Shown: positions 4,072 to 38,727 of the stretch, piece by piece | How positions within the stretch are numbered: the stretch's first letter is position 1 | Layout of the letters: each line of letters opens with the position of its first letter | Assembly (NCBI RefSeq): GCF_010015445.1 | Contig: NC_053120.1 | Coordinates: 2,472,412 to 2,536,411 of the forward strand | Reading direction: 5' to 3' | Length of the DNA: 64,000 nucleotides | Origin: Perca fluviatilis | Taxonomy: Eukaryota > Chordata > Actinopteri > Perciformes > Percidae | The notes under the pieces: model-generated | Told to the model about the DNA's origin: nothing | The model's input: the letters and a program-made list of their open reading frames with translations, nothing else | Databases searched by the model: none | Position numbers and translations under genes: made by a program

Positions 4072-4640
4072 GTTATTAAAGAGTAAGATACTTTTAGTTT
4101 AACATGAAATAGCCCCAAAATCACCATCACCAAAACCCACCAGACTCCATGTAAATAATCAGGACTTTTAGTGTGTATAGAGCCAGCATATCTCCACCAG
4201 ACTCCATGTAAATAATCAGGACTTTTAGCGTGTATAGAGCCAGCATATCTCCACCAGACTCCATGTAAATAATCAGGACTTTTAGCGCTGTATAGAGCCA
4301 GCATATTTCCACCAGACTCCATGTAAATAATCAGGACTTTTAGCTGTATAGAGTTAAGCATACTCCACCAGACTCCTAATACATCAGGACTTTGTATAGA
4401 GTTAGCATATTTACCAAGACTCATAAATAATCAGGACTTTTAGCGTGTATATAAATATGCTGGCTTTATACACGCTAAAAGTCCTGATTATTTACATGGA
4501 GTTTGGTGGAGATATGCTGTCTCTATACACGCTAAAAGTCCTGATTATTTACATGGAGTCTGGTGGAGTTTGGTGATGGTGATTTCGGGGCTGTTCCATG
4601 TTAAACTAAAAGGATCTTATTTTTTAACTAAAAGGTCTAT
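4072..4640. repeat. palindromic 57-bp minisatellite in L1 intron 1
   Basis: Units containing ATGTAAATAATCAGGACTTT run on one strand from about 4131 to 4440, then invert near 4445 and run the other way to about 4570. The unique flanks are inverted too (AACATGAAATAGCCCC on the left, CTGTTCCATGTTAAAC on the right), so the structure is a palindrome of about 570 bp. It lies between the L1 signal exon and its A exon. ORFs here are an artefact of a 57-bp (19-codon) period. Confidence 0.85.
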
Positions 4641-5006: not shown

Positions 5007-5652
5007 CGTTTCTCACTCCGACGGCTTAACTCAATTCCTCGCCAACATTTTAATATGATTTTATTATTTATTTTAACACAAATTCAAAAAGTCCAACAGG
5101 AAGCATATGAATGCAAATGTGACAGTTCAAGGTGTTACACTGTTGACTTGTTTAACTTTTTTGTAACTTCAATAAATGTTAAAATGCTTGATAATCAACA
5201 AAAATATAAAAAACTGTCAAAAACTTTTAAAAAAATGTTGATAAAAGCGACAAAACAAAAAATCTACAAAAGTGTCGGAAGCTAAAAAAAATGCAAACAT
5301 TTTTTGAAAAAGTTCCAGTATTGCTTAAAGAGGTGATATTATGCTTTTTGGCTTTTTCCCTTTCCTTAACTGTGTTGTATATGTTTTTTGGGCATGTAAT
5401 AGGTTTAAAAAGTGAAAAAGCCCAAAGTCCACCCCCAAAGGTAGTTTCCATTTCCAGCAGAAAACACTGTTCACAAACTGCTCCCAACAGCTCTATTGTA
5501 GTGAAGCCTTTCTTCCGCTACGCGCTGACGTGCCAGCTCGTAAACAGAAGTTATAAAGCTCCCGCCTAGCTGCTAAGCTCCCTCCCCCAACCGCCACCAC
5601 CAATTCAAGTTTGTTAGACCCAGAGCGGCTGGAGAGTTGAGAGTCTCCGGTC

Positions 5653-8600
5653 ATGTCCAGGAGACGCTGTATTCGTCAGTGCACGGGGAAATTTCCTCTT
5701 TTTCGTCTTCCAAAAGACGCAGTGAATTTAACAGTCAGTGGTTAAAATTTGTTTTTGCACTATTCCCCAGGACTACAACCCCAACCTTATGTTGTGTTCT
5801 GTTCATTTTACGGAGGACTGCTTCCTGAACCTGCAACAGTTCAATTCAGGATTTTCAAAACCGTTTCATTCTGAAAGACTCTGTCTGGTCATCATGGAGA
5901 TTCAGAACCACAACCTTTAAGTACGCTTAGCTATAATTTATAAACCTTTTACGAAGTGTTGAAGTGGGCAGTTGAAGTGGGCAGGTTAGGCTAAACTACA
6001 GCTAAAGCTGTAGCTAATGTTATATCCGGTGTGAAATTGTTTAGCTCATTTTTAACAGATTCTTTTTTAAATATGGTGATGGGTTGTGTATTTAAAGATG
6101 TGAAATATTGCTGTTGTGTGGATGTGCATTTATTAGTAACTTATACCAGCTGCTGTTACGGTGGCAGTGAAATGTAGCCTCGTACAAAGTTAGCAGAAGC
6201 TAACTTTCTAGCTAGCGCGCTAACGTTTTGTGTTCAAAACCGTTTTGTTCAAAGCTTTTGAACACAATTACGTAACACTGCATTAAAATCGACTATCGCC
6301 TTTCAGTCAAAATATGTAGAACAGTGTACAAGTGTTCATGTGAAGGTATGTTTAGAACGTTAATGCTACTTTACAGGTTGATTGGTAAGGGCCCGAAACC
6401 ACTGTATGCCCCAGCTAATTTGGTAGTGTTGGCTAATGTTCTGTAAAGTGGTAAACGACACGTGTGTTTAAGTTGCTTTTGTTACGCGGGAGACCGTTGT
6501 CCATAACCAACAGTATATTTGCTCCCTACTTACACAACCGGGCTTTGACTAGGAAAAGGATGTCATGTGGTGTGTTAATTTGTTTATATGCTACTTGTGC
6601 TGTCTCCTGATTTCACAAGGGGATAAGAACGTTAGCGTTGTAGATACTGACTCTTTTCATCTGATTACTGTCTTATTACAGAGTACATCACAGCAGCACC
6701 TCGAAACCCCACACCTTTCCACTACATTCCATGACATAGGATGCCAGACCGAACCACCACAAAATATGTCAGTGGGCATACAGTCCAGTGCTCCAAAATG
6801 AGAACAGTCGGGCAACAGCTATCCATGGTACGCTTGAGGGCTTCCATGAGAAGCAAAGGTAAATAACAAAAGCATCACATGTTTTTGCATTTTTAGTTCA
6901 CATGCAGTACCTGTAAATGCCTTACTCTGCTGAAAACCCAATATATAATAAACATGAGAATTTCATTTCGTCGTATTGTAAAGAAAAATATTATTTAAGT
7001 TTTTCTTTCTTTTTCTGTGTTAGTGTTTACACTGAGACCACTTCAAGCTCCCCCAGAATTCACCCCGATGTCTTCAACACCAATAAGACCCCAAGATTAC
7101 AGACCTCGCAAGAGACCTCGTCTTGAGTTGGAGGAGGAGGAGGAGGAGGAGGAAGAGGGAGACACCTCAACAGAGTTGCAAGCTGAGCCACAAGACTCAA
7201 CATATATCCCTGGTGACTCTGTTCTAACGGACGAATCTGCCATGTCGTAAGTTCGATATTTGTATTACATTTCAATATGACTTATCAGCAGAAATGTTAA
7301 ACTTGGTAGGAAAGCTAAATCAAGAATGTATTCTTTCTGTTTTTTAAGGTCTGAGCCAGTGTCTACTTATAAGGATGATAAGTACATTGTTTTTGAAAGT
7401 TGCCTAAGGGAGCTTTTTCAAAGCTGTCCTGTATGCAAGAGGCAGTGTGACGTTCAGCCGGCAAAAAATGGGAACGATGTGTCATTCACACAGCTCTGCC
7501 CACACTGCAACTATTCAAGACAGTGGCAGAGTCAGCCTGTTGTAGGAAGTAACCCCGTCGGCAACCTACACCTGTCAGCGGAAAAGGTATTGCTATAACT
7601 ATTTAATATGAAATGGCAATCACTGTACTGTTTTCACAAACGTACCAATTTTACATGTTTTCACAGATATGCAAGGCCATGAATCTTCAGATTTTCCAGT
7701 ATGGCACCTTCAGGAGGCATGCTAGGAGTTTTCTGGAGCCAGCCATAATCCACAAATGGAAGACGGATCAGCAACATCTTTTTCAAAAAGTTACAGCATG
7801 GAAGGAAAGATTGAGTCAGTGGAGATATGCAAACTGACTCCCCAGGTAAGACAAAAGTCCCAAAAGTCTGTTCTTAAAAGCATGGTACTTAAACATTCGA
7901 TTTGAGTTGCAAAGCCTTGACATGGTCTTTGTTATATAATCTTCAGGGCACTCAGCAAAGTATGGGAGCTACACACTGATGCACCTAGACAGAAACCCTA
8001 TCTACACCTTCAGCTTGTTCAGGTGGGTCCCATATTTTTATTTTTTTGCCTTGCGCATGATGAAAGATGATTCTGTATAGCTTTCAATGTCTCACATTTA
8101 TATCTATGCATTTTTGTCCCACCACCAGAGCAATGAAGTAGGTGGTAGTTACCACATGGAGAAGGAGGGCCTTAAACGCTGCCTGGATCTACTGGATTCA
8201 AACGGTTTGGTGATGGACTACATTGTCACCGACCGTCATCCACAGATCCAGAAGTATCTGAGGGAGCGCAGCATCACCCACTTCTATGATGTGTGGCACT
8301 TTGAGAAAGGTATGTCTTCATCCTTGTTTATGTCAGTGTGGCTCATTGACATATTTGTGTTTAGTTATTCGTCAAAGAATGTCCTGAATATAAATTTATT
8401 GCATATGTACTTTCTGCAAGGTTTGTCAAAGAAACTTGACAAAGTTGCGAAAACAAGGACTGCGGGGGGGTTGAAGAAGTGGCCGCGTAGCATCAAAAGC
8501 CATGTCTACTGGAGTGCAACATTGTCAACATCAGGGCCAGAGAAGGTAGCCAAGTGGATGTCGATTGTCAACCACATCCAGAACGTGCACTTGCATGAAA

Positions 8601-9421
8601 ACCCGGAGTGCCAACATCCTGATCGAGTGTCAAGGGATCCAAGTAAATGGTTTCAACCAGGTATGTAAACAAAATGTGAGTAAAAGAATTAAATTTAAAA
8701 TGCAAAACCTTTTTTGCTTATAATATTAATAACAAAAAACAACTTCACCTCAAATGCCCTTTATAATGAAATATTATTGCTGTATTTACTGTGTTAATGG
8801 GCCGCAATTTTAATATAATAGAAATTTTTAATTTTATTTAAGGGTCAATGGCGCTCTACAAAGTGGAAAAAATCCTGGTCAATAAGAGGGTTGTCAAAGA
8901 TGTGGAGAAGCTGAGCCACCACTACCAAACATCATCCCTGGAGGCTTTCCACAGTTTGATACTTCGCTTCACACCCAAGAATGTGGTTTTCCCTTTCATG
9001 GGCATGCTTTGCAGGTAATACAATGAATACATTCAGTAACCTTATACACCACAGCTACTGCCTAATGGCTTATATATATATATAAAATATCAAAATTGTT
9101 GTGTCACTTCAGTTTGCAATTGTATTTTTGTAGGTTGTACCTTGCAGCCATGCACTACAATGAAAATGCAGACTGCGAGCAAGCCACAACATCTGCAGGA
9201 CAACCAGTATTCAAGGTTGTGTTTCCCAAGTCCAGGAAAGGGGAGGTACTGACGGCGGCCCAAAAACAGACCCTACATACAGTAAGTTTTAAACTACTTT
9301 TATCTATATAACAAATAATGTAACATCAATAGTGACACATTGAATATTTACAAGTAGTGTTAACTTTAGAAAAACATCTTTTGTAATTACAAATAGTGAC
9401 ACTTGTGTATATGTGTGTATA

Positions 9422-9452
<31 letters not shown>

Positions 9453-9920
9453 ATTGTAAACGTAACAAATAAATAGTTAAGGCTAAAAAACAAATATGTA
9501 GAAATAAGGTGGCGTCTGAGAAGAACGCTCTTCTTAAGCACTTAAGTGATTATTTATATGCATTAATTCACAGAATATGTGGAAGAACTTATGAGGCTGG
9601 TTTTCGAGGAGGTGTTTGAGGACCCAACTCCATTTGTTGAGGTGCGGAAACTGATCCCCATCCCCAAGGATCTGGCATCGGAACATGAGAGACCCTCAAA
9701 GGAGGAAGTGGTTGCCCGCCATCTGTCCCGCTTTGCTCAAGGGACAGTCGGAACCGTACATACTAGGCACCCGGATCAAGAAACTGCACATTATCCGGTC
9801 ACAACGCACGCACGGGATTACCACCCTAACAGTCCTTCCCAAGTAGCCCCAGCACCAGTTGACCAAAGCCAAGATAGGCAAGGTGCCTGTAGCGCCTGTA
9901 TGGACAGGATTGGACAATAG
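5653..9920 (+). pseudogene. THAP-domain transposase of the Kolobok-like element, frameshifted
   Basis: Eleven exons with plausible splice sites: from 5653, 6682-6858, 7024-7246, 7349-7586, 7667-7845, 7947-8022, 8129-8309, 8421-8660, 8843-9013, 9134-9281 and 9576 onward. The first encodes a C2CH THAP-like finger (FRLPKD, QWLKF, LCSVHFTEDCF) but changes frame twice. Exon 3 holds an acidic E-rich run. Exon 4 has CPVCKRQC and [10 protein letters not shown] pairs. Later exons carry GDMQTDSPGHSAKYGSYT and YIVTDRHPQIQK, candidates for two catalytic aspartates, then HFYDVWHFEKG. The last exon has DPTPFVEVRKL and RPSKEEVVARHLSRFAQG. AATAAA is at 10018. After RFAQG the frame is antisense to the minus gene and probably not real. 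At least one further frame change is needed in exon 2. Confidence 0.75.
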
Positions 9921-10879
9921 TGAACATCACTCTTATTTATAGTGTATATCTGTATTTTTTTCCTATTATGTATATTAAGATTGTTCTATTTATATAAGCG
10001 TTTCAACATTTGATGAAAATAAAGACATTGTAATTGTGATTTCTTCATTAGGTCTTTGGTTTATTGGTAAAATAATTTTATGGGACAGTTAATTACATGT
10101 TTTAAAAACTTACTCTTTTTCTGTTCGACACCTCAAAGGTCCATAGTCTGCTCTGTATATAGTGTAGATGTTCCGCAGGGTGTAGTGGTTCAAACAGGTT
10201 GGCTCTAGGTCTGGATGGTAAACCATGCAGGTAGGTGGGACAGGAACCTGTTGCATTTGTGTAACAACCTAATAATAAAAATAAGTAACTCATTTAGAAT
10301 AAATATTAACTGAGGAGGCAACATTACTGCAAAATGGAGATACTGATTGATGAAGCTACATTTATTTGTTAACCTTGTATGTATAAAAAATGTAGTCAAA
10401 GATCATAGAAATGATTGGCCCCTATAATATAATTGATTACAAATAATTACATCCAGGAGGTGATGTGAAATGATACATTTTTACACAACGGTAAAAGTAA
10501 ACATGACAACACATTTTGTAGTATTTTACAACAGAGGAAGGTTAGTCAACATCATATCCACTTTGCATGACTGTTGTATAGGTTCTAATATAATTACCAT
10601 TTGTATTTCTTGGCAACAGATGTTTTCAACTTCAGTGGACATTGTCAAGCAATTTCCACAAGTACACCTAAATATAAAATAAAAAACGTTAGACACCCTC
10701 CAGACAGTCAATGGACATAAAGTTGTTGCTGTGATAGAAAGGGTGCAGAATTCAAACTGAAATACTTAATTAACTTACCACTCTGAAACATCTTGCTCCA
10801 GTCTAGGTTGTGAAGCTAGTTCGGCTTCTGTTTCGGGATCAGACTCTGGTTGGAACATGTATGGCTGAGCTGAAGCCAT
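9700..10879 (-). pseudogene. P2X7 ballast-domain-like protein gene in the transposon
   Basis: Four minus-strand exons: 10779-10879 (starts MASAQPYMFQPESD at 10879 and ends in a GTAAGT donor), 10598-10667 (CTCGNCLTMSTE, then CCQEI), 10114-10268 (PPTCMVYHPDLEPTCLNHY, YTIYRADYG) and about 9700-9895 (RYRHLAY, VNWCWGYLGRTVRVVIP). The ordered CGNC, CCQEI, late Cys and WCWGYLG segments match my recollection of the Zn-binding cytoplasmic domain of the P2X7 receptor and of stand-alone fish proteins sharing it. No transmembrane or receptor part is present. The last exon needs more than one frame change, so this copy is probably dead. Its role in the element is unknown. Confidence 0.65.
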
Positions 10880-11220
10880 GGTTACCGGTAGATAGATGCT
10901 AGATCGGATCCGTTTGTTTCGGATCACACTATCATGCTATCAGGGGCCCTACTCTGCATCTAAGTGGCTAGTTGTCCTTACCTAGGTACTCGCGCGATGT
11001 GTGACTCCAAACAAAGATGGGATAGCGGTAAGATGCTTCACTCTGTAGCTAAAACAGAAAGCTCAACAGTCTCTGTTGAAATAGAGTAAAACAGGAGCTG
11101 CAGCAATGTGCAGTACAACAAAAATATGATGTTTTTTGAAAATAAAACCATGTAAACCTGTTCTGGTACAACCTCTAAATACAATTATGAACCTGAAAAT
11201 GAGCATAATATCACCTCTTT

Positions 11221-12052
11221 AGTGGATAAAATTACTTAGGCCATGACCTGAGAAGAAACACTTCCAGAAGTTTATCTGGGTTAACACTGCGTTAGCGTAT
11301 AATCGTGAGGATAAGCGACGGGACCGTATCGCTATCTTAAATGATCTCTAACCGAGTGTACACTAGTACATATATGTTATGCTCTCAAAACGATGGATTG
11401 AAAGTTAGGTACACCAGAAGTTTATGTAAATAACACTTGCCTGCTGGCTTCTGCTCTCTGCTGTTGTTGCTGCTGCTGTGAGACGAGTGCTTAGGGACAT
11501 CTACAAATTACAACACCGAAAAGAGATGCAACAAAAATATTTTTTAATTTAACTTATTTTTTAAAGTAAGTGCTGTAGTATAACTAGCAGGAGACAAATA
11601 ATAATTGAGGTAAGTTTGGAGACATTATCTTATTTAATCATTAAATTAATACATATTTTTGTTGTATCTCTTTTCGGTGTAGTAATTTGTAGATGTCCCT
11701 AAGCACTCGTCTAACTGCAGGTAGCAGCAGCAACAGAGAGCAGAAGAGAGCAGGCAAGTGTTCATAAACTTCTGGTGTACTTACAAACTTTCCAATCCAT
11801 AGTTTTATGAGTACATAACCTATTTGTACTAGTGTAGACCTTTGGTATCATTTCGGGCATTATTAGTGGGGTCATTTAAGAGATACAAACGTGGGTCCAT
11901 TAGCCCCGCGCTAAGCTACTCAGCGGCTAACGCTACTCTACGCTAACTCGCCCAGTGTTAGACCCAGGTGAAAAAAGCTTCTGGGGGGGTGTTTGGCTCG
12001 AGGTCATGGTGCAAAGGACCCTAGGGTGAATTACTCCGAACCATCACTTTAA
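11221..12052. mobile_element. long-palindrome MITE with TTAA flank
   Basis: Almost the whole 0.8 kb is one inverted repeat. The arm ATCTACAAATTACAACACCG near 11500 has its complement near 11680, and outer parts (CCATGACCT, TTAACACTG/CAGTGTTA) pair as well. The right end AATTACTCCGAACCATCACT is followed by TTAA (12049-12052). The left end abuts the right TTAG of the Kolobok-like element. No coding capacity is seen. Confidence 0.7.
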
Positions 12053-15866: not shown

Positions 15867-17062
15867 ATCATAGCCAGGGGTGCACATAACTTTTTCAGTG
15901 AGTTACTCAGGTGAGTACCAGCAGATGGTGTCTGGTACTCACCCCACATGTAGCATGGTCTTAATTAGTGCAGTCTTCCTCACTGTCCTCCTCAGTGCCG
16001 GCCCCACTGTCCTCTACTTCAGCTTCCTGCATGGTAGATGATGAAGATGCTGCAGATGCACCTCTCTGTCCTTGATTGAGCCCCCGATTAGCTGTCTCCA
16101 TCCACAGGTCAACAGCAGGCTTTGGGTCAAATGTCTCTGTGGTCTGCTTTGACAGGTGAAGGTGCATCAGGGCTGAGAGACGAGCACGTGACAGACGAGA
16201 TCTGTACTTGGTTTTTATGATGTTGAGATGTGAGAATCCCCTCTCACAAACTGCACTGCTTAAAGGCAGTGTAAGAGACGGCTTAACCACCGTGTTGATG
16301 TTGGAGTAAGCATCTGGGTTACTTGTATTTACTATTTGGACCAAGTCATACACAGAAGAGGCTTCCAGGCATTTTCCTGCCTGCTTTAAGCGCATCCATT
16401 TTGTCTCAGTGGTGTTTTTGTCAAGTTGCAAGGTGTCCTCATATTTCTTGAGAATGCTGCAAACTGTTCTGTTTCCAAAACTGTGGAGGTCTTGCATTTC
16501 CAGAGGCCATGTTGAAGGATCAAATACTAAAAAATGATCACATGACTTGAGGGAGTCATATCTGATTTCAAACTCTTCAATTAACTCCCTGAGTAAGTGT
16601 GTCTTGTCTCTGTCAGCATCAGCATTAGAAACAGTGTGTGCCCTGTGGCTTTCACCATCAAGCAGAAGTGTGAACTGTCCAATGGCCACCATGAGTTCAT
16701 CCTTACATTCTCCAGTGGTCAGCTTTTCCTTCTGAAACCTAATGGATGTGGTCTTCAAAATGTTGCCAATGTCAAGCATGTCTGACAGAAAGCACTGAAA
16801 ACGCTCTGTGCAGATATGCTGCGAGTCACTGTCATCACTCGTAGCCAGTTGCATTTTAATGGCTGGCAATAGTCTTGATATTTTTAACAGTGTTTCATGC
16901 CTCCATGCAGACCATCTGATATCATGAAACTCACCCAGTTTCACAAAGGAGATCCCATTTTCTTCACACAGCTTCTTCCGTGCAGCAATTTTTTTTGCTC
17001 CACCTTTCTGTAAATAAAACTGCAGCAGCTTGACCACAGAGCAATTAAATATCTCACAGTAA
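15867..17062 (-). mobile_element. hAT element, 3' half (copy 1)
   Basis: The end CAGGGGTGCACATAAC begins at 15875, preceded by ATCATAGC (15867-15874). The copy at 54546 has the same end and the same 8-bp flank, so both derive from one insertion that was later duplicated. The right half is missing: the sequence changes near 17063 into another repeat. Confidence 0.8.
15961..17062 (-). CDS. hAT transposase, C-terminal part
   Basis: A continuous minus-strand reading frame of about 365 codons ends at 15961. It has the RWSAWRHETL segment common to the hAT catalytic core and, near the C-terminus, LPLSSAVCERGFSHLNIIK followed by RLSRARLSALMHLHL, the hAT dimerisation region. The tail is acidic (AEVEDSGAGTEEDSEED). 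The usual N-terminal zinc finger and first catalytic segment are missing; the frame simply runs into foreign sequence at the right, so the first methionine is probably not a natural start. ZNF862-like host genes share this fold, but the nearby terminal repeat points to a transposon. Confidence 0.8.
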
Positions 17063-17498
17063 CGGTACGTATACACCGCCGCCGACTTGAGCTTCTAAAG
17101 ATACCAGAAGTCATTGATTTTCAATGGAAGCTTCTCTCAGCTGCAAGGAGCGTCAAATCTGTTGGCGTCGCGTTTTGGGCATTTTGAGCGTCCAGAGCGT
17201 CAATCAGAAAGTTGAACTTTGGTCAACTTTATGGTAACGAGCTATGACGGCGTTCAGCGGCAAACGGCAGCAAGCAGCTGCAAGCAGCGGCAAGCAGCGG
17301 CGAACGTCAGCAACCAATCGGAATATAGACAACCTTCCCGCTGGCTGATCCCAGAGAAACATACGATGTAAACTTTCATTCCTACCAGAACATTAGTTCA
17401 GAGAAAATGGAGGAAAAGCTCCTAATCGCTGTTGCTGGGTTCCCCTATCAGTTATGATATGACGTTGTTTGCGTATAGGGACCAGTTAACGTTACATG
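17063..17498 (+). mobile_element. Harbinger-like fragment with a MADF-type start
   Basis: The left end reads GGTACGTATACACCGCCGCC. At 17407 an ATG opens MEEKLLIAVAGFP and, after one frame change, YDMTLFAYRDQLT, which resembles the MADF/Myb-like DNA-binding partner of PIF/Harbinger elements. The frame then enters a minisatellite. No right terminus was found, so the family is tentative. Confidence 0.4.
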
Positions 17499-20400: not shown

Positions 20401-20759
20401 TTACATTTTTGGTGGTTTGTTCTTGGAACAGATGAAGTTAAGCTGGTTGTCATCGTCGATCAGTTTGACCCAAGTTCCCTCTCGGTCCATGGCTCCAGAC
20501 ATGTTGCAGTCGTCCCCAGGCTCGCCGGGCCCCCAGTTCTTGTAGTGGACCGTCTCGTCACTGACCCAGAACCAGAAGTCCAGAGTGCAGGTGTAGCGCA
20601 GTCCCAGCCACACGTAGGGAGTGGAGGCCATCTTGGCTCTCTCCTGGACCCAGCGCTGCTCGTCCAGGTTGGTGATGGAGACAAGGTCGCGATAATGATC
20701 TCTGCAGTAGTATAACGCGTCCTCCCAGATCATGCTCTGGTTGATCAGGATCACTGAAT
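20401..20759 (-). CDS. lectin L2 CTLD exon, type C (terminal)
   Basis: An intact terminal exon of 119 codons plus stop. It starts DSVILINQSMIWEDALYYC and includes DLVSITNLDEQRW, YVWLGLRYTC, FWFWVSDETVHYKNW, GPGEPGDDCNMSG, GTWVKL and NFICSK, and ends NKPPKM. The conserved cysteines and WLGL support a CTLD fold. EPG replaces the mannose-type EPN triplet and no WND follows, so classical calcium-dependent sugar binding is doubtful. The acceptor is CAG at 20760-20762. Confidence 0.85.
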
Positions 20760-23700
20760 CTGTCAGGGGAGAAGGGGAGTCAATCAGAGACAGAGTCAAT
20801 CAGGGGCGGAGTCAATTAGTGTCAGAGTCAATTAGCGGCAGAGACCCAAATGCTCTGCCCGTGGAGACAAACACAGGACAGTTTAAATAACAGCTGTAAC
20901 ATTTAATTATATATTTTGTGAAAACATTCGGGCTGCAGTTGAAAGTAAAATCTCAGCAGAAAACTGCGCTTTAAAATGTATCTGTCATTCTATTTTTAGT
21001 GCTGCTTTTTATATTCAATTCAACATCCAATTTGTTCAACAAAAGAAAGTAGGAAATTATTTCCTTTCATTTGTTTTAAATCTAACAGGCAGTTTGTTGT
21101 ATTTTAGTAGAGCTGAGAACACTTTATCTGTTTATTTATCGCGAGTTATATCATTATCAGAATATTCAACAACGATTATTCAACAACAATGAAGCTCATA
21201 CTGTACGACCATAATTCTTATAATAAACTAATAAATAAAGTGAATCATTAAACAGATGTAGATGTACAGTACCGTTAGATAGACCTTCTGATAAACTCAC
21301 CGTTGTAGCAGAAGAAGGTTTTTTTTTCATCACAGTCATCAGAGCTCCAATTTCCATTTATCGTAGTCATAGCACATGTCTTCTCAGGGTATTGTTTATG
21401 TCAGAGTCTCTGAACAGGCCGATCCAGAAAGGTTCTGCTTCTTTCCGGCGCTGTGTCTTGAAGTCTTCTAGCTGTTTGACTCCACTGATCAGGTCAGCGT
21501 GAGTTTTTCTGCAGTAGCTCTGAGCCTTTGTCCAGGTCATCTTAGAGGAACTGACAGAAAATGTCTTCTGTTTGTCTGGAACACACAGACAAACGTTTTG
21601 GTTTTTATTTAGTTTAGGTTAATTTAAAATCCTACATTATTCTTATTTCCAAACAATAATGTGATATCAATTCAGAGACTTTCTCCTCTGAAAAACACCC
21701 CCATAAGTGGTTTGTTCCAGCCTCATTCTGACCTATATTCATGTTTCTAGTGGCAGCGCCCTCTAGTGACCGTAGTAGTTCTGATTGGAGCAAAGCAGGA
21801 AGTAAGGTGAGGAAGTAGAAGAGCCTCAAATGCAAAATTACGAATCCCACTATGGCCACACGAAGACCCATTGCCGTGGCCACAGTGGTTGATTAGTTGG
21901 GGTTAGGCATTGACCTCGAGTTGTTGAGGTTAGGATAGCTGATTGGTCAGGGGATAGGATCTGAACAACTATGGTTACGTTACCTTGCGTAAGCATAGAT
22001 GCCTGGCCAATAAATGCTATTGAAGGGCAGGTCTTTGTGTGGCCATAGTGGGATTCCTAACCCTAACCCGTCCTGGTAGCGATCTTACGAATCCTACTAT
22101 GGCCACGCCAAGACCCGCCCTTCAATGGCTACTATTGGCCAGGCATCCATGCTTACGCAAGGTAACGTAACCTGATTAGTTCAGGGCCTATCCACCCATC
22201 CTCTGACCAATCGGCTATCCTAACCTTAACCACTCATGGTTAAATGCCTAACCCCAACCAATCAAGCTGCTATTGAAGGGCGGGTCTAGTAGGATTCGTA
22301 AGTTTGCGTCCTGGTAAGGATGCAAGTTGGGGGGGGTGATGAGTCAAACAAACACAGGACTTTCACCCAGTTTAAAAAGAAAAAAGGAAACACAGAGTTT
22401 TTTTTACTTTAGGGAACAAAAGGCACTACGTCATGTTCTGCGTCACATGGTAACCTTCAGGAAGTGATGTCATGTCTGATGTGAACCCAAACCTCCATCT
22501 TTTTATTAACTTAACTCAGTAGTTTTGGTGTCTAAATCCTAACCAAACTGGGACCGTTTCACAACGTTAACCACGTGTTTAAAACTGCCACCATTACCTT
22601 CTCTGGTTTAGATATGAGGATGGAAAACTCTCCTGTGGGTCAGATTAGAGAGGGGGGGGGACAAATGTCAGAACTACTATGACCACTAGAGGGCCGCCAC
22701 TACAAACATAAATATATATGTCAGAGTGATGGTGGAACAAAACACTTCTGGGGGAGTTTTTTAGGGGAGAACAGACTATATGCGCCACATGTTCTCACCA
22801 TCATAGCAGATACATTTATGCTTTTCAGTACAAGAGGCGTCATCCCATGTGTCATCCTTCATCCACACACAGTTCTCCTGATTGTTGAAATTATTCGGCT
22901 GTCCTGGAAACCATTTACTCTTGTTGTACTCCACCCCTGGCCGAGACCAGCGCCAGTCTCGCTGCAGCCCAATCCAGGCTCCGGCTGGATACTGTGCAGT
23001 CGTGGAGTTAAGGAGTCTCTTCATGTCTGTCTGGTTAGACACTGTGGCCAGGTCAGTGTGGTACTTTCTGCAATACTCTTGGGCTTCATTCCAGGTCTTA
23101 TTCTCTCCAATGAAGTGGTAGTCATACAGCTGACCCCCAATGGAGGAACACTGACCTGATAACAGAGAAAAAACTGCAGCGATGGAGCTGATAGCTAGAC
23201 AAGCATCTCTTCATTAAAGGTGCTGTAGGTAGGATTGTGAAGATCCAGGACTTAGCCAAAAAATGTTAACATCAACAACTTCTCAGTCCCTCCCCCCTCT
23301 TTCTGCTAAAACCCAAACGGTTTCCTAAGCCCTTCATCCCACGAGGGAGAATTAATGCGTGTGCATGAGCAGTGATTGACATGCAGTAAGACATCCCCCA
23401 CCCCTTGGCCCTGATTGGTGCATCTGAACAGGGAGCGGTGGATTTTTGCAAATCTCACTACAGGTAGGTGGTGCCATTTAAGATTTTTTCTTAAATTACC
23501 CGCTTCATGTTTTTTCTACTGGAACATAGGGTCAGTTTCAGCAAATATGACAGAAAGGTAGTTTTATAAGGCTTACCTACTGCAACTTTAAAAGGTAACT
23601 TTGTTTTGTTTTAAAACCTGGACTCTTTTTTTCCCATGTTTTTGTGTCTAAGTGACAGATGTCGGTGATTGTGAATGTGTGATTGTGTAAAGGTGTTCAC

Positions 23701-26700
23701 GAGATAGATACCAACCTTTCGTGAACTTGTGAATTTCGCCAGCCGTCTTCTCTCCTTGATGGAGACAGACGCTCTGTGCACGGTGGGCTCGATGGTGTTT
23801 TAAGCCCCCAACGTCGCCTTACCGGCAGCTAACCCTCACCGTGACCAAAGCCGGTCCACGGAAAGCCGTTCCACTCCCTATTCAGTCCCATTGTACCGTA
23901 TTTGTTTGCAGTTCCACCAGAGTTCCACTGGGGGTGATGTCCAGTGCAAACTGTATGGGAGTCTATGGAGCTAGATGCTAAATGAATGGGAGTCTATGGA
24001 GCTAGACGGCTAAATGAATGGGACTCTATGGAGCTAGACGGCTAAATGAATGGGACTCTATGGAGCTAGACGGCTAAATGAATGGGAGTCTATGGAGCTA
24101 GACGGCTAAATGAATGGGACTCTATGGAGCTAGATGCTAAATGAATGGGAGTCTATGGAGCTAGATGGCTAAATGAATGGGAGTCTATGGAGCTAACGGC
24201 TAAATGAATGGGACTCTATGGAGCTAGAGGTTAAATGAATGGGAGTCTATGGAGCTAGATGCTAAAAGAATGGACTATGAGTAGATGGCTAATGAATGGG
24301 TATGGAGCTAGATGCTAAAATGGGACTCTATGGACTAGATGGCTAAATGAATGGGAGTCTAGGAGTAGATGCTAAAGAATGACTCTATGGATAGATGGCT
24401 ATGAATGGGAGTCTATGGAGTAGATGCTAAATGAATGGGAGTCTATGGAGTAGAGGTAAATGAATGGGAGTCTAGGAGCTAGACGGCTAAATGAATGGAC
24501 TCTATGGAGCTAGGTAATGAATGGGAGTCTATGGAGCTAGATGCTAAATAATGGACTCTATGGAGTAGATGGCTAAATGAATGGGAGTCTATGGAGCTAG
24601 ACGGCTAAATGAATGGGACTCTATGGAGCTAGATGGCTAAATGAATGGGAGTCTATGGAGCTAGATGCTAAATGAATGGGACTCTATGGAGCTAGATGGC
24701 TAAATGAATGGGAGTCTATGGAGCTAGAGTGCTAAATGTGTCTCTTTCGCCCGATTGTCGTTGAGAAACCTCAGATTTTATCGTAGTTTTTGCAAGTTCA
24801 ACATGGGTTATAGGTCGAAATTTGAATGAATGAGTACTTATGTCCTTTTGATTTCTTACAGGGTGAGTCGTTGTTGCCTATAAGATGCTAGCATTCTGCT
24901 AATGAAAGCTGATTGGTCAGTGAAGGACTGATTACGATCGGTGATCCAGATTGACGGCATCCGAAGCAGAGCCAGAATATCAGAGTGAATATTTTTGTGT
25001 GGTCTTTAAAACATCAGCAAACCAATTTCTAGCATGTGTAATAGACCTTTTTCATGGCAGACATGTTGACATGTCATAGTAGGAAAAGCACAGGTGTATT
25101 CAAAACCCTTAATGATGGCTGCATTCCACTTAGGAGAGACCCTGGTATTAAACCATTACTGATGGCTGCATTCCACTTAGGAGAGACCCTGGTATTAAAC
25201 CATTACTGATGGCTGCATTCCACTTAGGAGAGGTCCTGGTATTGTGCATGCTGACTCACTGAAATATCTTACTGGGACACTTGATGGAACTGAGCCATCG
25301 TTAAGGTTATCAATCTCAGCTGTGCTTTTCCTGCTATGACCAGTCAACATGTCTGCTGTGAAAAAGGTCCATGACAGGGAGAGTCTAACCTATCAGCTGT
25401 GTTGTATTAACAGAGAGAGCCTAACCTATCAGCTGTGTTGTATTAACAGAGAGAGACTAACCTATCAGCTGTGTTGTATTAACAGGGAGAGACTAACCTA
25501 TCAGCTGTGTTGTATTAACAGAGAGAGACTAACCTATCAGCTGTGTTGTATTAACAGGGAGAGACTAACCTATCAGCTGTGTTGTATTAACAGAGACTAA
25601 CCTATCAGCTGTGTTGTATTAACAGAGACTAACCTATCAGCTGTGTTGTATTAACAGAGACTAACCTATCAGCTGTGTTGTATTAACAGAGAGAGTCTAA
25701 CCTATCAGCTGTGTTGTATTAACAGAGAGAGACTAACCTATCAGCTGTGTTGTATTAACAGAGAGAGACTAACCTATCAGCTGTGTTGTATTAACAGAGA
25801 GACTAACCTATCAGCTGTGTTGTATTAACAGAGACTAACCTATCAGCTGTGTTGTATTAACAGGGAGAGTCTAACCTATCAGCTGTGTTGTATTAACAGA
25901 GACTAACCTATCAGCTGTGTTGTATTAACAGAGACTAACCTATCAGCTGTGTTGTATTAACAGAGACTAACCTATCAGCTGTGTTGTATTAACAGAGTCT
26001 AACCTATCAGCTGTGTTGTATTAACAGAGAGAGACTAACCTATCAGCTGTGTTGTATTAACAGGAGAGACTAACCTATCAGCTGTGTTGTATTAACAGAG
26101 AGATCTAACCTATCAGCTGTGTTGTATTAACAGAGTCTAACCTATCAGCTGTGTTGTATTAACAGAGAGTCTAACCTATCAGCTGTGTTGTATTAACAGA
26201 GAGACTAACCTATCAGCTGTGTTGTATTAACAGAGAGAGACTAACCTATCAGCTGTGTTGTATTAACAGAGAGACTAACCTATCAGCTGTGTTGTATTAA
26301 CAGAGAGACTAACCTATCAGCTGTGTTGTATTAACAGAGAGAGACTAACCTATCAGCTGTGTTGTATTAACAGAGAGAGACTAACCTATCAGCTGTGTTG
26401 TATTAACAGAGAGAGTCTAACCTATCAGCTGTGTTGTATTAACAGAGAGAGTCTAACCTATCAGCTGTGTTGTATTAACAGGGAGACTAACCTATCAGCT
26501 GTGTTGTATTAACAGGGAGAGTCTAACCTATCAGCTGTGTTGTATTAACAGGGAGAGACTAACCTATCAGCTGTGTTGTATTAACAGAGACTAACCTATC
26601 AGCTGTGTTGTATTAACAGAGACTAACCTATCAGCTGTGTTGTATTAACAGGGACTAACCTATCAGCTGTGTTGTATTAACAGAGTCTAACCTATCAGCT

Positions 26701-29066
26701 GTGTTGTATTAACAGGGAGAGTCTAACCTATCAGCTGTGTTGTATTAACAGGGAGAGTCTAACCTATCAGCTGTGTTGTATTAACAGAGAGAGACTAACC
26801 TATCAGCTGTGTTGTATTAACAGAGAGAGACTAACCTATCAGCTGTGTTGTATTAACAGAGAGAGACTAACCTATCAGCTGTGTTGTATTAACAGAGAGA
26901 GACTAACCTATCAGCTGTGTTGTATTAACAGAGAGACTAACCTATCAGCTGTGTTGTATTAACAGAGTCTAACCTATCAGCTGTGTTGTATTAACAGAGA
27001 GAGACTAACCTATCAGCTGTGTTGTATTAACAGAGAGAGACTAACCTATCAGCTGTGTTGTATTAACAGGGAGAGACTAACCTATCAGCTGTGTTGTATT
27101 AACAGGGAGAGTCTAACCTATCAGCTGTGTTGTATTAACAGGAAGAGACTAACCTATCAGCTGTGTTGTATTAACAGAGACTAACCTATCAGCTGTGTTG
27201 TATTAACAGAGACTAACCTATCAGCTGTGTTGTATTAACAGGAGAGTCTAACCTATCAGCTGTGTTGTATTAACAGGGAGAGACTAACCTATCAGCTGTG
27301 TTGTATTAACAGAGACTAACCTATCAGCTGTGTTGTATTAACAGAGAGACTAACCTGTCAGCTGTGTTGTATTAACAGAGACTAACCTATCAGCTGTGTT
27401 GTATTAACAGGGAGAGTCTAACCTATCAGCTGTGTTGTATTAACAGGGAGAGTCTAACCTATCAGCTGTGTTGTATTAACAGAGAGAGTCTAACCTATCA
27501 GCTGTGTTGTATTAACAGAGACTAACCTATCAGCTGTGTTGTATTAACAGAGAGACTAACCTATCAGCTGTGTTGTATTAACAGAGTCTAACCTATCAGC
27601 TGTGTTGTATTAACAGAGTCTAACCTATCAGCTGTGTTGTATTAACAGAGAGAGACTAACCTATCAGCTGTGTTGTATTAACAGAGAGACTAACCTATCA
27701 GCTGTGTTGTATTAACAGAGACTAACCTATCAGCTGTGTTGTATTAACAGAGACTAACCTATCAGCTGTGTTGTATTAACAGAGAGACTAACCTATCAGC
27801 TGTGTTGTATTAACAGAGAGACTAACCTATCAGCTGTGTTGTATTAACAGAGAGACTAACCTATCAGCTGTGTTGTATTAACAGAGACTAACCTATCAGC
27901 TGTGTTGTATTAACAGAGAGACTAACCTATCAGCTGTGTTGTATTAACAGGAGAGACTAACCTATCAGCTGTGTTGTATTAACGAGAGAGTCTAACCTAT
28001 CAGCTGTGTTGTATTAACAGAGAGAGTCTAACCTATCAGCTGTGTTGTATTAACAGAGAGAGACTAACCTATCAGCTGTGTTGTATTAACAAAGAGACTA
28101 ACCTATCAGCTGTGTTGTATTAACAGAGACTAACCTATCAGCTGTATTGTATTAACAGAGACTAACCTATCAGCTGTGTTGTATTAACAGGGAGAGTCTA
28201 ACCTATCAGCTGTGTTGTATTAACAGGGAGAGTCTAACCTATCAGCTGTGTTGTATTAACAGAGACTAACCTATCAGCTGTGTTGTATTAACAGAGTCTA
28301 ACCTATCAGCTGTGTTGTATTAACGGGAGAGTCTAACCTATCAGCTGTGTTGTATTAACAGGGAGAGTCTAACCTATCAGCTGTGTTGTATTAACAGGGA
28401 GAGTCTAACCTATCAGCTGTGTTGTATTAACAGGAGAGACTAACCTACACTGTGTTGTATTAACAGGAGAGACTAACCTATCAGCTGTGTTGTATTAACA
28501 GAGACTAACCTATCAGCTGTGTTGTATTAACAGAGACTAACCTATCAGCTGTGTTGTATTAACAGAGACTAACCTATCAGCTGTGTTGTATTAACAGAGA
28601 CTAACCTATCAGCTGTGTTGTTGATGCCTCGAGAGAACAAAGGAAGTGACTCAGAGCTTGCTGTAAAGCAGTATCTCTGGCCGTATATGTGTATGACATC
28701 ATTGACATTTTAAAAGGCTTTTTAGAACAAAAAAGCGACTTTAAAAAAATGTAACACCCAGCAGTGTGTATTTTCTTAGCCTCCCCTTTCGAATGCAACA
28801 TTCAAATTACTAGACAAAAAATTATACCCTGAGAAAAGTGGATTTTGAGGAGTATAGCTCCATAGACCTCCATTCATTCTGCACTGGCCTGTGAGCGCCC
28901 CCTATATGGATCTCTGGTGGAACTGCAACCAGTTCAGAAGCCGGAAGTAACGAGGGAGTGGAACTTCTTGATATATTAGAAATTCTTTGCCGTGACCTTA
29001 AACATAAACATTGCCGCGCTGCCTGGAAGGCAACGTTGGGGGCTTAAAAACACTGCACGGTGGGAG

Positions 29067-29293: not shown

Positions 29294-32200
29294 TCAACCG
29301 TGTAACACCTGTGGGGATTTTTTGAATTTGAGTTAAAGGAAATAATATTAAAATGATATGAATATGTTGGCGGAGTGAGGGGGGAAACAGACAGAAGAAC
29401 AATCTTTATGTTTACGGATACAGTGTATAACCCAGTCCCTCAGGATGCAAATCAAAGATTTAAGCTGACAGACTCAGTTTATTTTTCTAGATGTCTAACA
29501 ACATTATGGAAAAGGTCCCTACAAGGATAGACCTTTTAGTTAAAGAGTAAGATCCTTTTAGTTTAACATGAAACAGCCCCGAAATCACCATCACCAAACT
29601 CCACCAGACTTAATTTGTTAACATGGTAGCATATGCTATAATGCTAATACATGCTAACTAAAATATTTTGATGCCAATTTATATTTAAAAAAGATCCTTT
29701 TTGACACACACTGAGCTTCTCTCTCCTCTCTCTTTCCATATCCATGTCCCAGAAATGCTAGTTACTAACCTAGCTCCGGGGAGCTTATTCCCCGGAGTCC
29801 GCCCAGCATGTTTCCTTGGATCATGATGGCACCTACATCATGGTGGCAGCTGTCGCCATGGTCCTGCTCTACGCCCTGCTGTGTCCTATTACACCCTGCT
29901 ACGCTCTGCAATGCCCGGCTTCGACTTGCTATGTCCGGCCACCTTCCTGCCATGCCCTGTAACGCCCTGCTGTGCTCTACGACACCATGAACTATTCCAA
30001 CTACTACTTCTAGTCATTATCTTTATTCTGACTATTATTACCACTGTTCATCACACCCCAACCAGCACCGTCAGACACCGCATACCAAGAGCCTGGGTCT
30101 GTCCCAGGTTTCTTCTTAAAAGGGAGTTTTTCCTCGCTACTGTCGCACTGAATGCTTGCTCTTGGGGGAATTACTGGAATTGTTGAGGCTTTGTAAATTA
30201 TAGAGTGTGGTCTAGACCTACTCTATCTGTAAAGCGTCCTGAGATAATTCCTGTTATGATTTGACACTATAAATAAAATTGAATTGTATTGAATTGAAAA
30301 ATGATCTGTCCCATGTGTTGTTTGAATGAGATAGAAAATGAGTTCCATTTTGTTTTCCGCTGTCCTTTTTATTGTGAACAGCGTGATTTTTTGTTTCGTC
30401 GGATGAAAGCAGAGATTGATTTGGTAAATATGGATGATGCTTAAAGACTGAGATGGCTGTTCACATGTGAAACATAAAGTTTCAGTTATCTTAAAGGTTA
30501 AAGGGTCACTTTATTATCCCCGAGGGGCAATTTGCATTACAGCCAGCAGTAACAAATAACAAATACCAAACAGCAACAAAGAAACACAACAACAGTATAA
30601 CATAATTAAAATTTGGATTCACAGGATACTGTTAACAATGGGGATAACAGCAGGGATGAATGATCTTTTAAATCTCTTCGTCCTGCATCGCGGCAGACTA
30701 TATCTACGCCCGGAGGGTAGCAACATAAATCCACCCCACAAGGGATGACTCGAATCAGCCAGGATGGCTCTCGCCTTTTTCAAAGATCTGGCCTTATATA
30801 GGTCATGAAGGCCATCTAACGGTGTACCCGCAATTTTGCTGCACACCTTCACGATACCTTGCATTCTATTTTTTTCTTTAATAGAAAGTGACCCGTGCCA
30901 GCAAATAAAAGTAAAAGTAAGAACCGATTCAATAAAACAAGAGTAAAACATTTTCATAAAAACAGTGTCGACATTGAAACTGCGAAGCTCACGAAGAAAA
31001 TACATGCGCTGATGTGCTTTTTTACACACAGCATCAACATGGGACTCAAAGCACAGTTTACTGTCGATCACAGTCCCAAGATATTTGTACTGCTGCACTA
31101 GTTCAACTGGTTGATTGTCCATTACAACCGGGGAAATGACAGCGGGATTTCTTCTGAAGTCAATGCACATCTCTTTCGTTTTTGCCACATTAATGTTTAA
31201 AAAGGAGGATTTACACCAATCAATAAAATCATTGACTACCGGACCATGTTCAGAGTCGTCACTGCTGAGGAGAGACACAATGACAGAATCATCCGCAAAT
31301 TTAATGATGTGGCGCCGTTCCTGATGGCTTTGGCATTCATTTGTATATAAAACAAGAGAAACAATCTTAAGAAAGCCTGGGAGGAAAAAAGCTATTTACC
31401 AAGCTGATGTGTAGATGAGGATTTGTTGTTTGTATAAACTGTGTGTTTGTGTGTGTGTGTGACTTAGACTTAGAAAACTTTAATATCCCTGAAAGGCAAC
31501 TTGTGTGGCATAATGACACATAATCCACAACAAAAACATTAAACCAGACATCTACAGCACTATTTATCAAACACATAACATACACACATCAATAAATAGA
31601 ATACAGTAAAAGGAGTATATTGCACAATGTCATAAATAAATAAAACTACTGCACATTACTTCACATATATTCCTTTAGTTATACCATTCCCTACATCTTA
31701 TTTAATTGGGTTATTGCCATAGCAATGAATTAGTTTTTTGCTCGGTTGGTTCGGACATTAGGATATCTATGACTACGTTTACAAGCAGCCAATAACCCGT
31801 TCAAAACCGGAATATTAGTAATAACGAGGTTGCGCACAGCCATGTAAACACCGGCAAAAACACAAATATGCTCATATTCCTGTTTTTAAAAACCCGAAAA
31901 TGATCCCTGGGTTAGCCCTTTTCTAACCTGAAATTTTGGTCATGTAAACGCGTATCGGTAGCCTGACAAGCCAGACCCACATCAAGATGTAGGGTCTGGG
32001 AACTCTCCATTGACAGGGCTCAATCCGAAAGGCGGGATAAACGGTTGTCTTTCAAACTCCCTCTGCACGTAATAGGATAGCGCTTCAACCAATCAGAGCA
32101 ACAAAGAAGGTAGCGGAGCTAGTTGATAGATTAAACTTTTGCCGTATCCGGTCGGCAAAACTGCGAAAACATCTTCCTTTTTTAAGAATGACTTCAGTGC

Positions 32201-38365: not shown

Positions 38366-38727
38366 TTAGTTACATTCTGGTGGTTTGTTCTTGGAACAGA
38401 TGAAATTAAGCTTGTTGTCATCATCGATCAGTTTGACCCAAGTTCCATTTCGGTCCATGGCTCCAGACATGTTACAGTCGTCCCCAGACTGGGGGAGGGC
38501 CCAGTTCTTGTAGTGGACCGTCTCGTCACTGACCCAGAACCAGAAGTCCAGAGTGCAGGTGTAGCGCAGTCCCAGCCACACGTAGGGAGTGGAGGCCATC
38601 TTGGCTCTATCCTGGACCCAGCGCTGCTCGTCCAGGTTGGTGATTGAGACAAGGTCGCCATGGTGATGTCTGCAGTAGTATAACGCGTCCTCCCAGATCA
38701 TGATCTCCTTGATCAGGATCACTGAAT
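38366..38727 (-). CDS. lectin L3 CTLD exon, type C (terminal)
   Basis: An intact terminal exon. It reads DSVILIKEIMIWEDALYYC, HHHGDLVSITNLDEQRW, YVWLGLRYTC, FWFWVSDETVHYKNW, SGDDCNMSG, NGTWVKL, NFICSK and NKPPECN before the stop. The region equivalent to the EPN loop is ALPQSGDDC, so the canonical calcium/sugar triplet is missing here too. Its plus-strand relative at 566 is broken. Confidence 0.85.

What the first reader, a model, noticed from the sequence alone, without database searches (positions are those of the whole stretch)
5325..11222. Kolobok-like transposon carrying a THAP transposase and a convergent P2X7-ballast-like gene
Seen: TTAA-flanked inverted repeats, an eleven-exon THAP/transposase-like gene on plus, and four minus-strand exons with CTCGNC, CCQEI, YRADYG and WCWGYLG in ballast-domain order. 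The receptor's ballast domain has no obvious origin within the P2X family, so a mobile element carrying this domain as its own gene would suggest how the domain spread and perhaps how P2X7 gained it. That is inference; I do not know whether this pairing has been described.
Basis: partly seen in the sequence, partly recalled or inferred. Interest (0 to 1): 0.75.

Follow-up and report, generated by a model that had tools for sequence, protein, structure and literature searches.

The report
Dead fish Kolobok transposon with KolX
This is a worn-out copy of a known type of fish jumping gene that carries, besides its transposase, a small gene related to the tail of the P2X7 receptor; the link between the two was published in 2022, so the find is mostly a good example, with an unusual tail-to-tail gene overlap as its newest detail.

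Summary
A 5.9-kb element (5325-11222) has perfect 20-bp inverted ends and TTAA/TTAG flanks. Its plus strand carries a THAP/DDE transposase gene, 93% identical over 76% of the query to a Perca fluviatilis protein. Its minus strand carries a four-exon gene whose spliced, X-joined product matches Pfam P2RX7_C (32.1 bits, cut-off 23.5). A profile of fish relatives matches mammal P2X7 ballast domains (hhalign 98.8%).

Kojima and Bao (2022, PMC9587614) described this protein as KolX of the Kol0 Kolobok lineage and concluded that P2X7 arose by fusion with it. Both genes of this copy are broken by frame changes and stops.

My searches did not show one thing in print. In 37 of 120 fish transposase relatives, the C-terminal residues fit KolX exon 4 on the opposite strand (score >30; 0 of 360 shuffles; 0 of 120 with a reversed profile). 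The two genes thus overlap tail to tail, from loaches and carps to perches. Other copies' DNA could not be seen, because the genome search did not complete and the viral and prokaryote collections gave nothing. Verdict: a new member of a known kind.

The parts
5325..5328 (.). left flank TTAA (target-site duplication)
   Evidence: sequence
5326..5345 (+). left terminal inverted repeat (20 nt perfect; the match extends into the TTAA)
5653..5900 (+). THAP-domain exon of the transposase gene, read in more than one frame (broken); 3' border approximate
   Evidence: Pfam THAP 22.3 bits on the X-joined read, under the 23.9 cut-off
6700..6859 (+). transposase exon 2 (GCQTEPP..., MRTVGQQLS...), frame change inside; borders approximate
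7068..7246 (+). transposase exon 3 (MSSTPIRP...RKRPRLELEEEEE...), 5' border not fixed
7350..7586 (+). transposase exon 4 (SEPVSTYKD...CPVC...CPHC...LSAEK)
7664..7847 (+). transposase exon with first catalytic D (TDSPG, 7830-7847); frame change and in-frame stop before it
7946..8021 (+). transposase exon GHSAKYGSYTLM..., frame change near its end
8129..8310 (+). transposase exon with second catalytic D (TDRH, 8225-8242) and DVWH signature (8285-8302)
8420..8662 (+). transposase exon GLSKKLDKV...WFQPG
8842..9015 (+). transposase exon with catalytic E (SSLEAFH, 8932-8952)
9132..9281 (+). transposase exon RLYLAAMHYNENAD...
9576..9788 (+). last transposase exon, matched to relatives as far as PDQETA; its 3' end lies opposite KolX exon 4
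10779..10879 (-). KolX exon 1 (MASAQPYMFQPESDPE...VSEW)
10598..10667 (-). KolX exon 2 (CTCGNC...ICCQEIQM)
10114..10268 (-). KolX exon 3 (...TCMVYHP...YRADYGPLRCRTEKE)
9741..9895 (-). KolX exon 4 (RYRHLAY...WCWGYLGRTVRVVIP...FLDPGA*YVRF), read in two frames with a stop (broken); lower limit estimated from where relatives end
11202..11221 (-). right terminal inverted repeat
11219..11222 (.). right flank TTAG (TTAA with one difference)
   Evidence: sequence

Best explanation
The locus is a decayed, full-length copy of a two-gene Kolobok DNA transposon of the Kol0 (KolX-bearing) kind in a teleost, most likely a percid. In intact relatives the THAP domain of the transposase would bind the ends, the RNase-H-like DDE core would cut the element out and join it to TTAA, and KolX, a small protein with the P2X7 ballast sequence and its cysteine pattern, would be expressed from the other end as an accessory factor. 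Shown here: the ends, the flanks, both genes, the catalytic motifs, the P2RX7_C match, and a tail-to-tail overlap of the two genes that recurs across fish. Inferred: the cut-and-paste activity (from the family) and any accessory role of KolX. This copy has perfect ends but broken genes, so it could move only if an intact relative supplied the enzyme.
For: 20-nt perfect inverted ends with TTAA/TTAG flanks. Best transposase relative is Perca fluviatilis LOC120565424, 93% over 76% of the query. D, D, DxxH and E motifs are in order. X-joined KolX read matches P2RX7_C at 1.3e-7, 32.1 bits. 33 fish proteins match the KolX read; 31 of 33 carry PF20478 and none the receptor domain PF00864. A profile of 28 rows (27 relatives plus the window read) matches PDB P2X7 residues 468-594 at 3.1e-8. 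Profile-profile comparison of 24 KolX relatives, window copy left out, with 16 mammal P2X7 proteins gives probability 98.8%, E 1.4e-16, over the ballast only. Six cysteine columns are kept in 25 to 27 of 27 aligned relatives and in the window copy. Antisense overlap in 37 of 120 transposases at score >30, against 0 of 360 shuffles and 0 of 120 reversed-profile scans. A KolX and a transposase of Gymnodraco acuticeps are both listed with a longest contig of 9,691,680 bases.
Against: No second DNA copy of the element was seen. The window copy's KolX alone does not match P2X7 in PDB, and single exons gave no P2RX7_C match. The Mutator-like transposase model PF20700 stayed below its cut-off in the window (16.1 bits on one exon stretch, cut-off 26.5), and the X-joined core did not match it at all; relative P0092 does at 41.3 bits, P0036 does not. 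The seventh KolX cysteine column, that of P2X7 C572, is kept in 25 of 27 relatives but not in the window copy. The AlphaFold model of KolX was poor (mean pLDDT 53.4), so the ballast fold rests on sequence. 73 of 120 transposases scored 20 or less in the antisense test.
Confidence: 0.93

Rival explanations
1. The minus-strand gene is a host gene (a nanor-like ballast protein) that lies by chance between the ends, or was picked up by this copy alone.
For: Free-standing ballast proteins (nanor) are described as genes of fish by Rump 2020 (PMC7016195, passages seen).
Against: KolX coding information sits opposite the 3' end of the transposase gene in 37 of 120 fish relatives at score >30. Kojima and Bao describe KolX as the second protein of the Kol0 lineage.
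Confidence: 0.03
2. KolX works as a guanine-nucleotide-binding partner of the transposase, doing in trans what the GTP-binding insertion of the P-element transposase does in cis.
For: P-element transposase, also with a THAP domain, uses bound GTP for cleavage and joining (PMC7776569, passages). The P2X7 ballast holds GTP/GDP and zinc sites (PMC9859053, abstract and passages). Of the five rat GDP-contact residues named by Rump, the R546 column is R in 23 of 27 and the R578 column R in 21 of 27 KolX relatives.
Against: The R574 column is V in 26 of 27 KolX relatives and the K583 column is D in 16 and E in 4 of 27; the H547 column is H in 11 and Y in 10 of 27. No call showed binding data for any KolX. 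The P-element paper calls that transposase unique among its kin in using GTP.
Confidence: 0.12
3. KolX is not a transposition factor but a host-facing regulator (for example transcription or membrane signalling) that helps the element persist.
For: Its domain could be reused in a receptor (P2X7) and in nanor, a midblastula gene (Kojima and Bao 2022, Rump 2020; passages).
Against: Nothing tested here; co-inheritance with the transposase fits an accessory role at least as well.
Confidence: 0.3
4. The inverted ends belong to a composite or unrelated element and the genes are two separate insertions.
For: The right flank is TTAG, not TTAA.
Against: Genes fill the space between perfect ends symmetrically: start codons at 5653 and 10879, each about 0.3 kb from its end. 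The same gene pair recurs in other fish.
Confidence: 0.02

Closest known systems
Kolobok, Kol0 lineage (Kolobok-1_XT type) with KolX, Kojima and Bao 2022, PMC9587614
   Same: TTAA target, two proteins (DDD/E transposase plus KolX), KolX similar to the P2X7 C-terminal ballast
   Different: The main text holds neither 'THAP' nor 'overlap', 'antisense' or 'convergent'; this percid-like family is not named in the parts I read, and the supplements were not read
KolobokP (same paper)
   Same: accessory protein on the complementary strand, downstream of the transposase (passage)
   Different: the accessory is a His-Me finger nuclease and the ends are long direct repeats; here KolX and short inverted ends
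Xenopus Kolobok transposases (XKol-Tpases), PMC6004289
   Same: THAP domain on a Kolobok transposase (passages)
   Different: frog; 'KolX', 'second gene', 'two genes' and 'ORF2' do not occur in its main text
P2X7 receptor ballast domain (PDB 6u9v, Pfam PF20478 P2RX7_C)
   Same: CxCxxC, CC, IPSC and GQYxGF stretches align over 121 columns
   Different: in P2X7 it is the tail of an ion channel; here it is a free protein with its own start and four exons
nanor / nanor-b of zebrafish (Rump 2020, PMC7016195)
   Same: free-standing ballast protein
   Different: treated there as a host gene; Kojima and Bao propose that nanor is a domesticated KolX
P-element / THAP9 transposases
   Same: THAP domain at the N-terminus, RNase-H core
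   Different: 8-bp duplications and an internal GTP-binding domain (PMC7776569, passages); here TTAA and a separate KolX gene

Membership tests
Kolobok superfamily | TTAA target-site duplication | tested here: met
   TTAA left, TTAG right: met with one mismatch
Kolobok superfamily | ends 5'-RR ... YY-3' (unlike piggyBac; stated in PMC9587614) | tested here: met
   AG...CT just inside the flanks
Kolobok superfamily | DDD/E transposase with C/DxxH between second D and E | tested here: met
   TDSPG, TDRH, DVWH, SLEAF in order at 7830-8952; all four by strict patterns in 47 of 120 relatives, each alone in 77 to 106 of 120. That these are the catalytic residues is inferred from position and from recalled family motifs
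Kolobok superfamily | match to a transposase HMM (not a defining feature in itself; no Kolobok-specific model was at hand) | tested here: inconclusive
   window: PF20700 16.1 bits against a cut-off of 26.5, no match for the X-joined core; relative P0092 passes PF20700 at 41.3 bits, P0036 does not match
Kolobok superfamily | placement of the transposase in a Kolobok tree | not tested
   no Kolobok reference alignment on hand
Kol0 lineage | second protein KolX similar to the P2X7 C-terminal ballast | tested here: met
   Pfam PF20478 32.1 bits, PDB profile match, hhalign 98.8%
Kol0 lineage | other copies with the same ends hold both genes | not testable with these tools
   genome search did not complete; indirect support from the antisense test
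P2X7 ballast (P2RX7_C) | zinc-coordinating cysteines (seven, PMC9587614 passage; which ones they are is recalled) | tested here: met
   columns C40, C42, C45, C56, C57, C76 kept in 25 to 27 of 27 relatives and in the window copy; C572 column 25 of 27, lost in the broken window copy
P2X7 ballast (P2RX7_C) | GDP-contact residues | tested here: inconclusive
   R546 and R578 columns mostly kept, H547 mixed, R574 and K583 columns not kept
P2X7 ballast (P2RX7_C) | three-dimensional ballast fold | tested here: inconclusive
   model too weak, mean pLDDT 53.4; no fold search made
active transposon | intact open frames for both genes | tested here: not met
   frame changes in at least four transposase exons and in KolX exon 4, and an in-frame stop in each gene
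THAP domain | Pfam PF05485 at cut-off | tested here: inconclusive
   window copy 22.3 bits, cut-off 23.9; relatives P0036 and P0092 41.0 and 41.8 bits

The most novel reading that the evidence does not exclude
Transposase and KolX of this lineage are locked together by a conserved tail-to-tail overlap of their coding sequences (often about 27 codons), which would help explain why the pair stayed linked; and KolX, the ancestor of the P2X7 ballast, was a guanine-nucleotide and zinc cofactor of a THAP transposase, so that the nucleotide site in P2X7 is a relic of transposition.
Probability: 0.08. Interest if true: 0.75.

Novelty: new member of a known kind. Interest (0 to 1): 0.27.

Why it matters
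It is an independent, worked example of the element type that Kojima and Bao propose as donor of the P2X7 ballast. It also suggests that many short 'P2X purinoceptor 7-like' proteins annotated in fish genomes (24 of the 33 hits bear such a name, none with the receptor domain) are transposon genes and not receptors. The tail-to-tail overlap gives a cheap way to recognise the pair from protein databases alone, and a reason to test what KolX does in transposition.

Tried and rejected
Single exons against Pfam gave no P2RX7_C match; only the spliced read did. The window copy's KolX alone against PDB gave no P2X7 match. Scans of viral contigs with the KolX alignment and with P0034, and of genome contigs with the KolX alignment, confirmed no relative, as expected for viral and prokaryote collections. 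The AlphaFold model from 24 KolX relatives was too weak (mean pLDDT 53.4), so I made no fold search. Rfam gave no match at gathering thresholds in the window. A tree of KolX against P2X7 was not built: the P2X7 search was seeded with rat, and the named hits among the 120 listed are mammals, so a tree could not be rooted or show where the fusion happened. In the antisense test, five KolX rows with unaligned C-terminal ends and the window row were dropped before the profile was made (22 of 28 rows used). Only the 120 listed of 347 transposase hits were examined. Of the 33 KolX hits, 27 were used in the residue counts. A paper search aimed at the overlap listed 10 of 10,852 papers with at least two of its terms, none of the ten holding 'Kolobok', so it settles little; the main text of PMC9587614 holds none of 'overlap', 'antisense', 'convergent'.
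Full report
What is there. The stretch 5325-11222 is a complete transposon by its outline. Its ends are a perfect 20-nt inverted repeat beside TTAA on the left and TTAG on the right. No other match to the 16-nt end sequence, with up to 3 mismatches, lies in the window. In 200 mononucleotide shuffles no 16-nt inverted repeat with arms over 1 kb apart appeared.

Plus strand. tblastn of fish relatives places exons from 5653 to 9788. The best relative is a 552-residue Perca fluviatilis protein, 93% identical over 76% of the query, so the window is probably from a percid; I did not identify the species. The motifs TDSPG, TDRH, DVWH and SLEAF are in order. The N-terminal exon is a decayed THAP domain: 22.3 bits on an X-joined read against a cut-off of 23.9, and 41.0 and 41.8 bits in relatives P0036 and P0092. 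The Mutator-like transposase model PF20700 does not reach its cut-off in the window (16.1 of 26.5 bits; none for the X-joined core), nor does it match P0036, while P0092 passes (41.3 bits). Frame changes are seen in the THAP exon, in exon 2, and in the exons at 7664-7847 and 7946-8021, with one in-frame stop just before the TDSPG motif. After 9788 the match to the relative P0034 breaks off, and the end of P0034 is read here in another frame. Read by eye, this copy and P0034 both lack a stretch after LSA that P0036, P0037, P0038 and P0056 all have (ATYFTG...), so the two may descend from one defective lineage.

Minus strand. Four exons with GT/AG borders give a start MASAQPYMFQPESDPE, then WCTCGNC, CCQEI, CM, YRADYG and, in exon 4 after a change of frame, WCWGYLGRTVRVVIP; the end (FLDPGA*YVRF) lies in the first frame again and holds a stop. 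The spliced read matches P2RX7_C. 33 fish proteins match it: 23 of 33 are 158 to 181 residues long, 24 of 33 are named P2X purinoceptor 7 or 7-like, 31 of 33 carry PF20478, and none carries the receptor domain PF00864. A profile of 28 rows, window read included, matches P2X7 residues 468-594 in PDB at 3.1e-8. A profile of 24 relatives without the window read matches 16 mammal P2X7 proteins with hhalign probability 98.8%, over the ballast only. Six cysteine columns (C40, C42, C45, C56, C57, C76) are kept in 25 to 27 of 27 aligned relatives and in the window copy.

Does the pair recur? The genome search did not complete (nine tries). I therefore asked the proteins. If KolX exon 4 lies opposite the 3' end of the transposase gene, the transposase's last residues must be compatible with KolX read on the other strand. 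Each of 120 transposase relatives (of 347 found) was scored against a profile of KolX exon 4 made without the window copy. In whole proteins 46 of 120 exceeded the highest of 240 shuffles, all 46 within their last 63 residues. In the C-terminal 80 residues, 37 of 120 scored above 30, against 0 of 360 shuffles and 0 of 120 scans with a reversed profile. At a cut of 25 the numbers are 43 of 120, 1 of 360 and 0 of 120. Of those 43, 33 share one register, and in 18 of these 33 exactly 27 transposase residues lie opposite KolX. 73 of 120 scored 20 or less. I saw the ends of 40 of the 74 with 23 or less, and many of these stop about where the overlap would begin; whether KolX lies beyond their stop is not known. 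Named genera among the hits include Garra, Danio, Carassius, Misgurnus, Triplophysa, Mugilogobius and Perca (names). Some hits in other registers may be gene models that run into the opposite gene by mistake; they still show that KolX-like DNA is there. In the window itself transposase homology runs to 9788 and KolX homology on the other strand covers 9894 to about 9741, so the overlap is directly visible.

How it probably works. As in other Kolobok elements, a THAP-guided DDE transposase would cut and paste at TTAA (family knowledge; PMC9587614 for TTAA and termini; PMC6004289 for THAP). KolX is most simply an accessory protein; that is inference. A bolder reading is that it supplies a guanine nucleotide, as the internal GTP domain does in P-element transposase (PMC7776569), because the P2X7 ballast binds GTP/GDP (PMC9859053). 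Against this, two of the five rat contact columns are not kept in KolX and a third is mixed. I give that reading 0.12 as a mechanism.

What is known. Kojima and Bao 2022 report that KolX of the Kol0 lineage resembles residues 476-595 of human P2X7, conclude that P2X7 is a fusion of a P2X4-like gene with KolX, and propose that nanor is a domesticated KolX (passages). [quoted passage not shown] 'transpos' occurs 0 times in its main text. KolX occurs in one paper of the library. My paper searches and a term search of the main text of PMC9587614 showed nothing on a tail-to-tail overlap. Supplements and Repbase entries, where gene coordinates would stand, were not read, so the overlap may be known to the curators.

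Verdict. Observation confirmed; interpretation supported but already published; new member of a known kind, with a recurring antisense overlap as a small addition.

Noticed in passing
window 11356-11839: Large foldback: nested inverted arms (80 nt at 93%, 40 nt at 88%, 35 nt at 83%, 21 nt at 95%) around an 88-nt centre, directly beside the Kolobok element; looks like a foldback MITE.
   Followed up: no
window 20401-20799 (-), 41040-41483 (-), 41754-42155 (-): C-type lectin domain exons (Pfam Lectin_C, 51.8, 64.4 and 60 bits); reading frames at 22776-23210, 38366-38764 and 45094-45543 look alike by eye, which suggests a tandem lectin gene cluster.
   Followed up: partly
window 15961-17094 (-): 377-residue open frame with a hAT dimerisation region (22.2 bits, cut-off 21.4).
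   Followed up: partly
window 46941-47699 (+), 48277-48855 (+), 30619-31395 (-): LINE-like frames: endonuclease (55 bits) and reverse transcriptase (88 bits) on plus; on minus a reverse-transcriptase match below cut-off (26.9 of 29.6 bits) with ALKBH8_N (33.2 bits).
   Followed up: partly
window 25374-28621: A 36-bp tandem repeat with about 95 copies, 93% matches.
   Followed up: no
window 4137-4568, 45760-46688, 49886-50030: What looks like the same 57-bp repeat unit (CTCCATGTAAATAATCAGGACTTTTAGCGTGTATAGAG...) in separate arrays, in both orientations.
   Followed up: no
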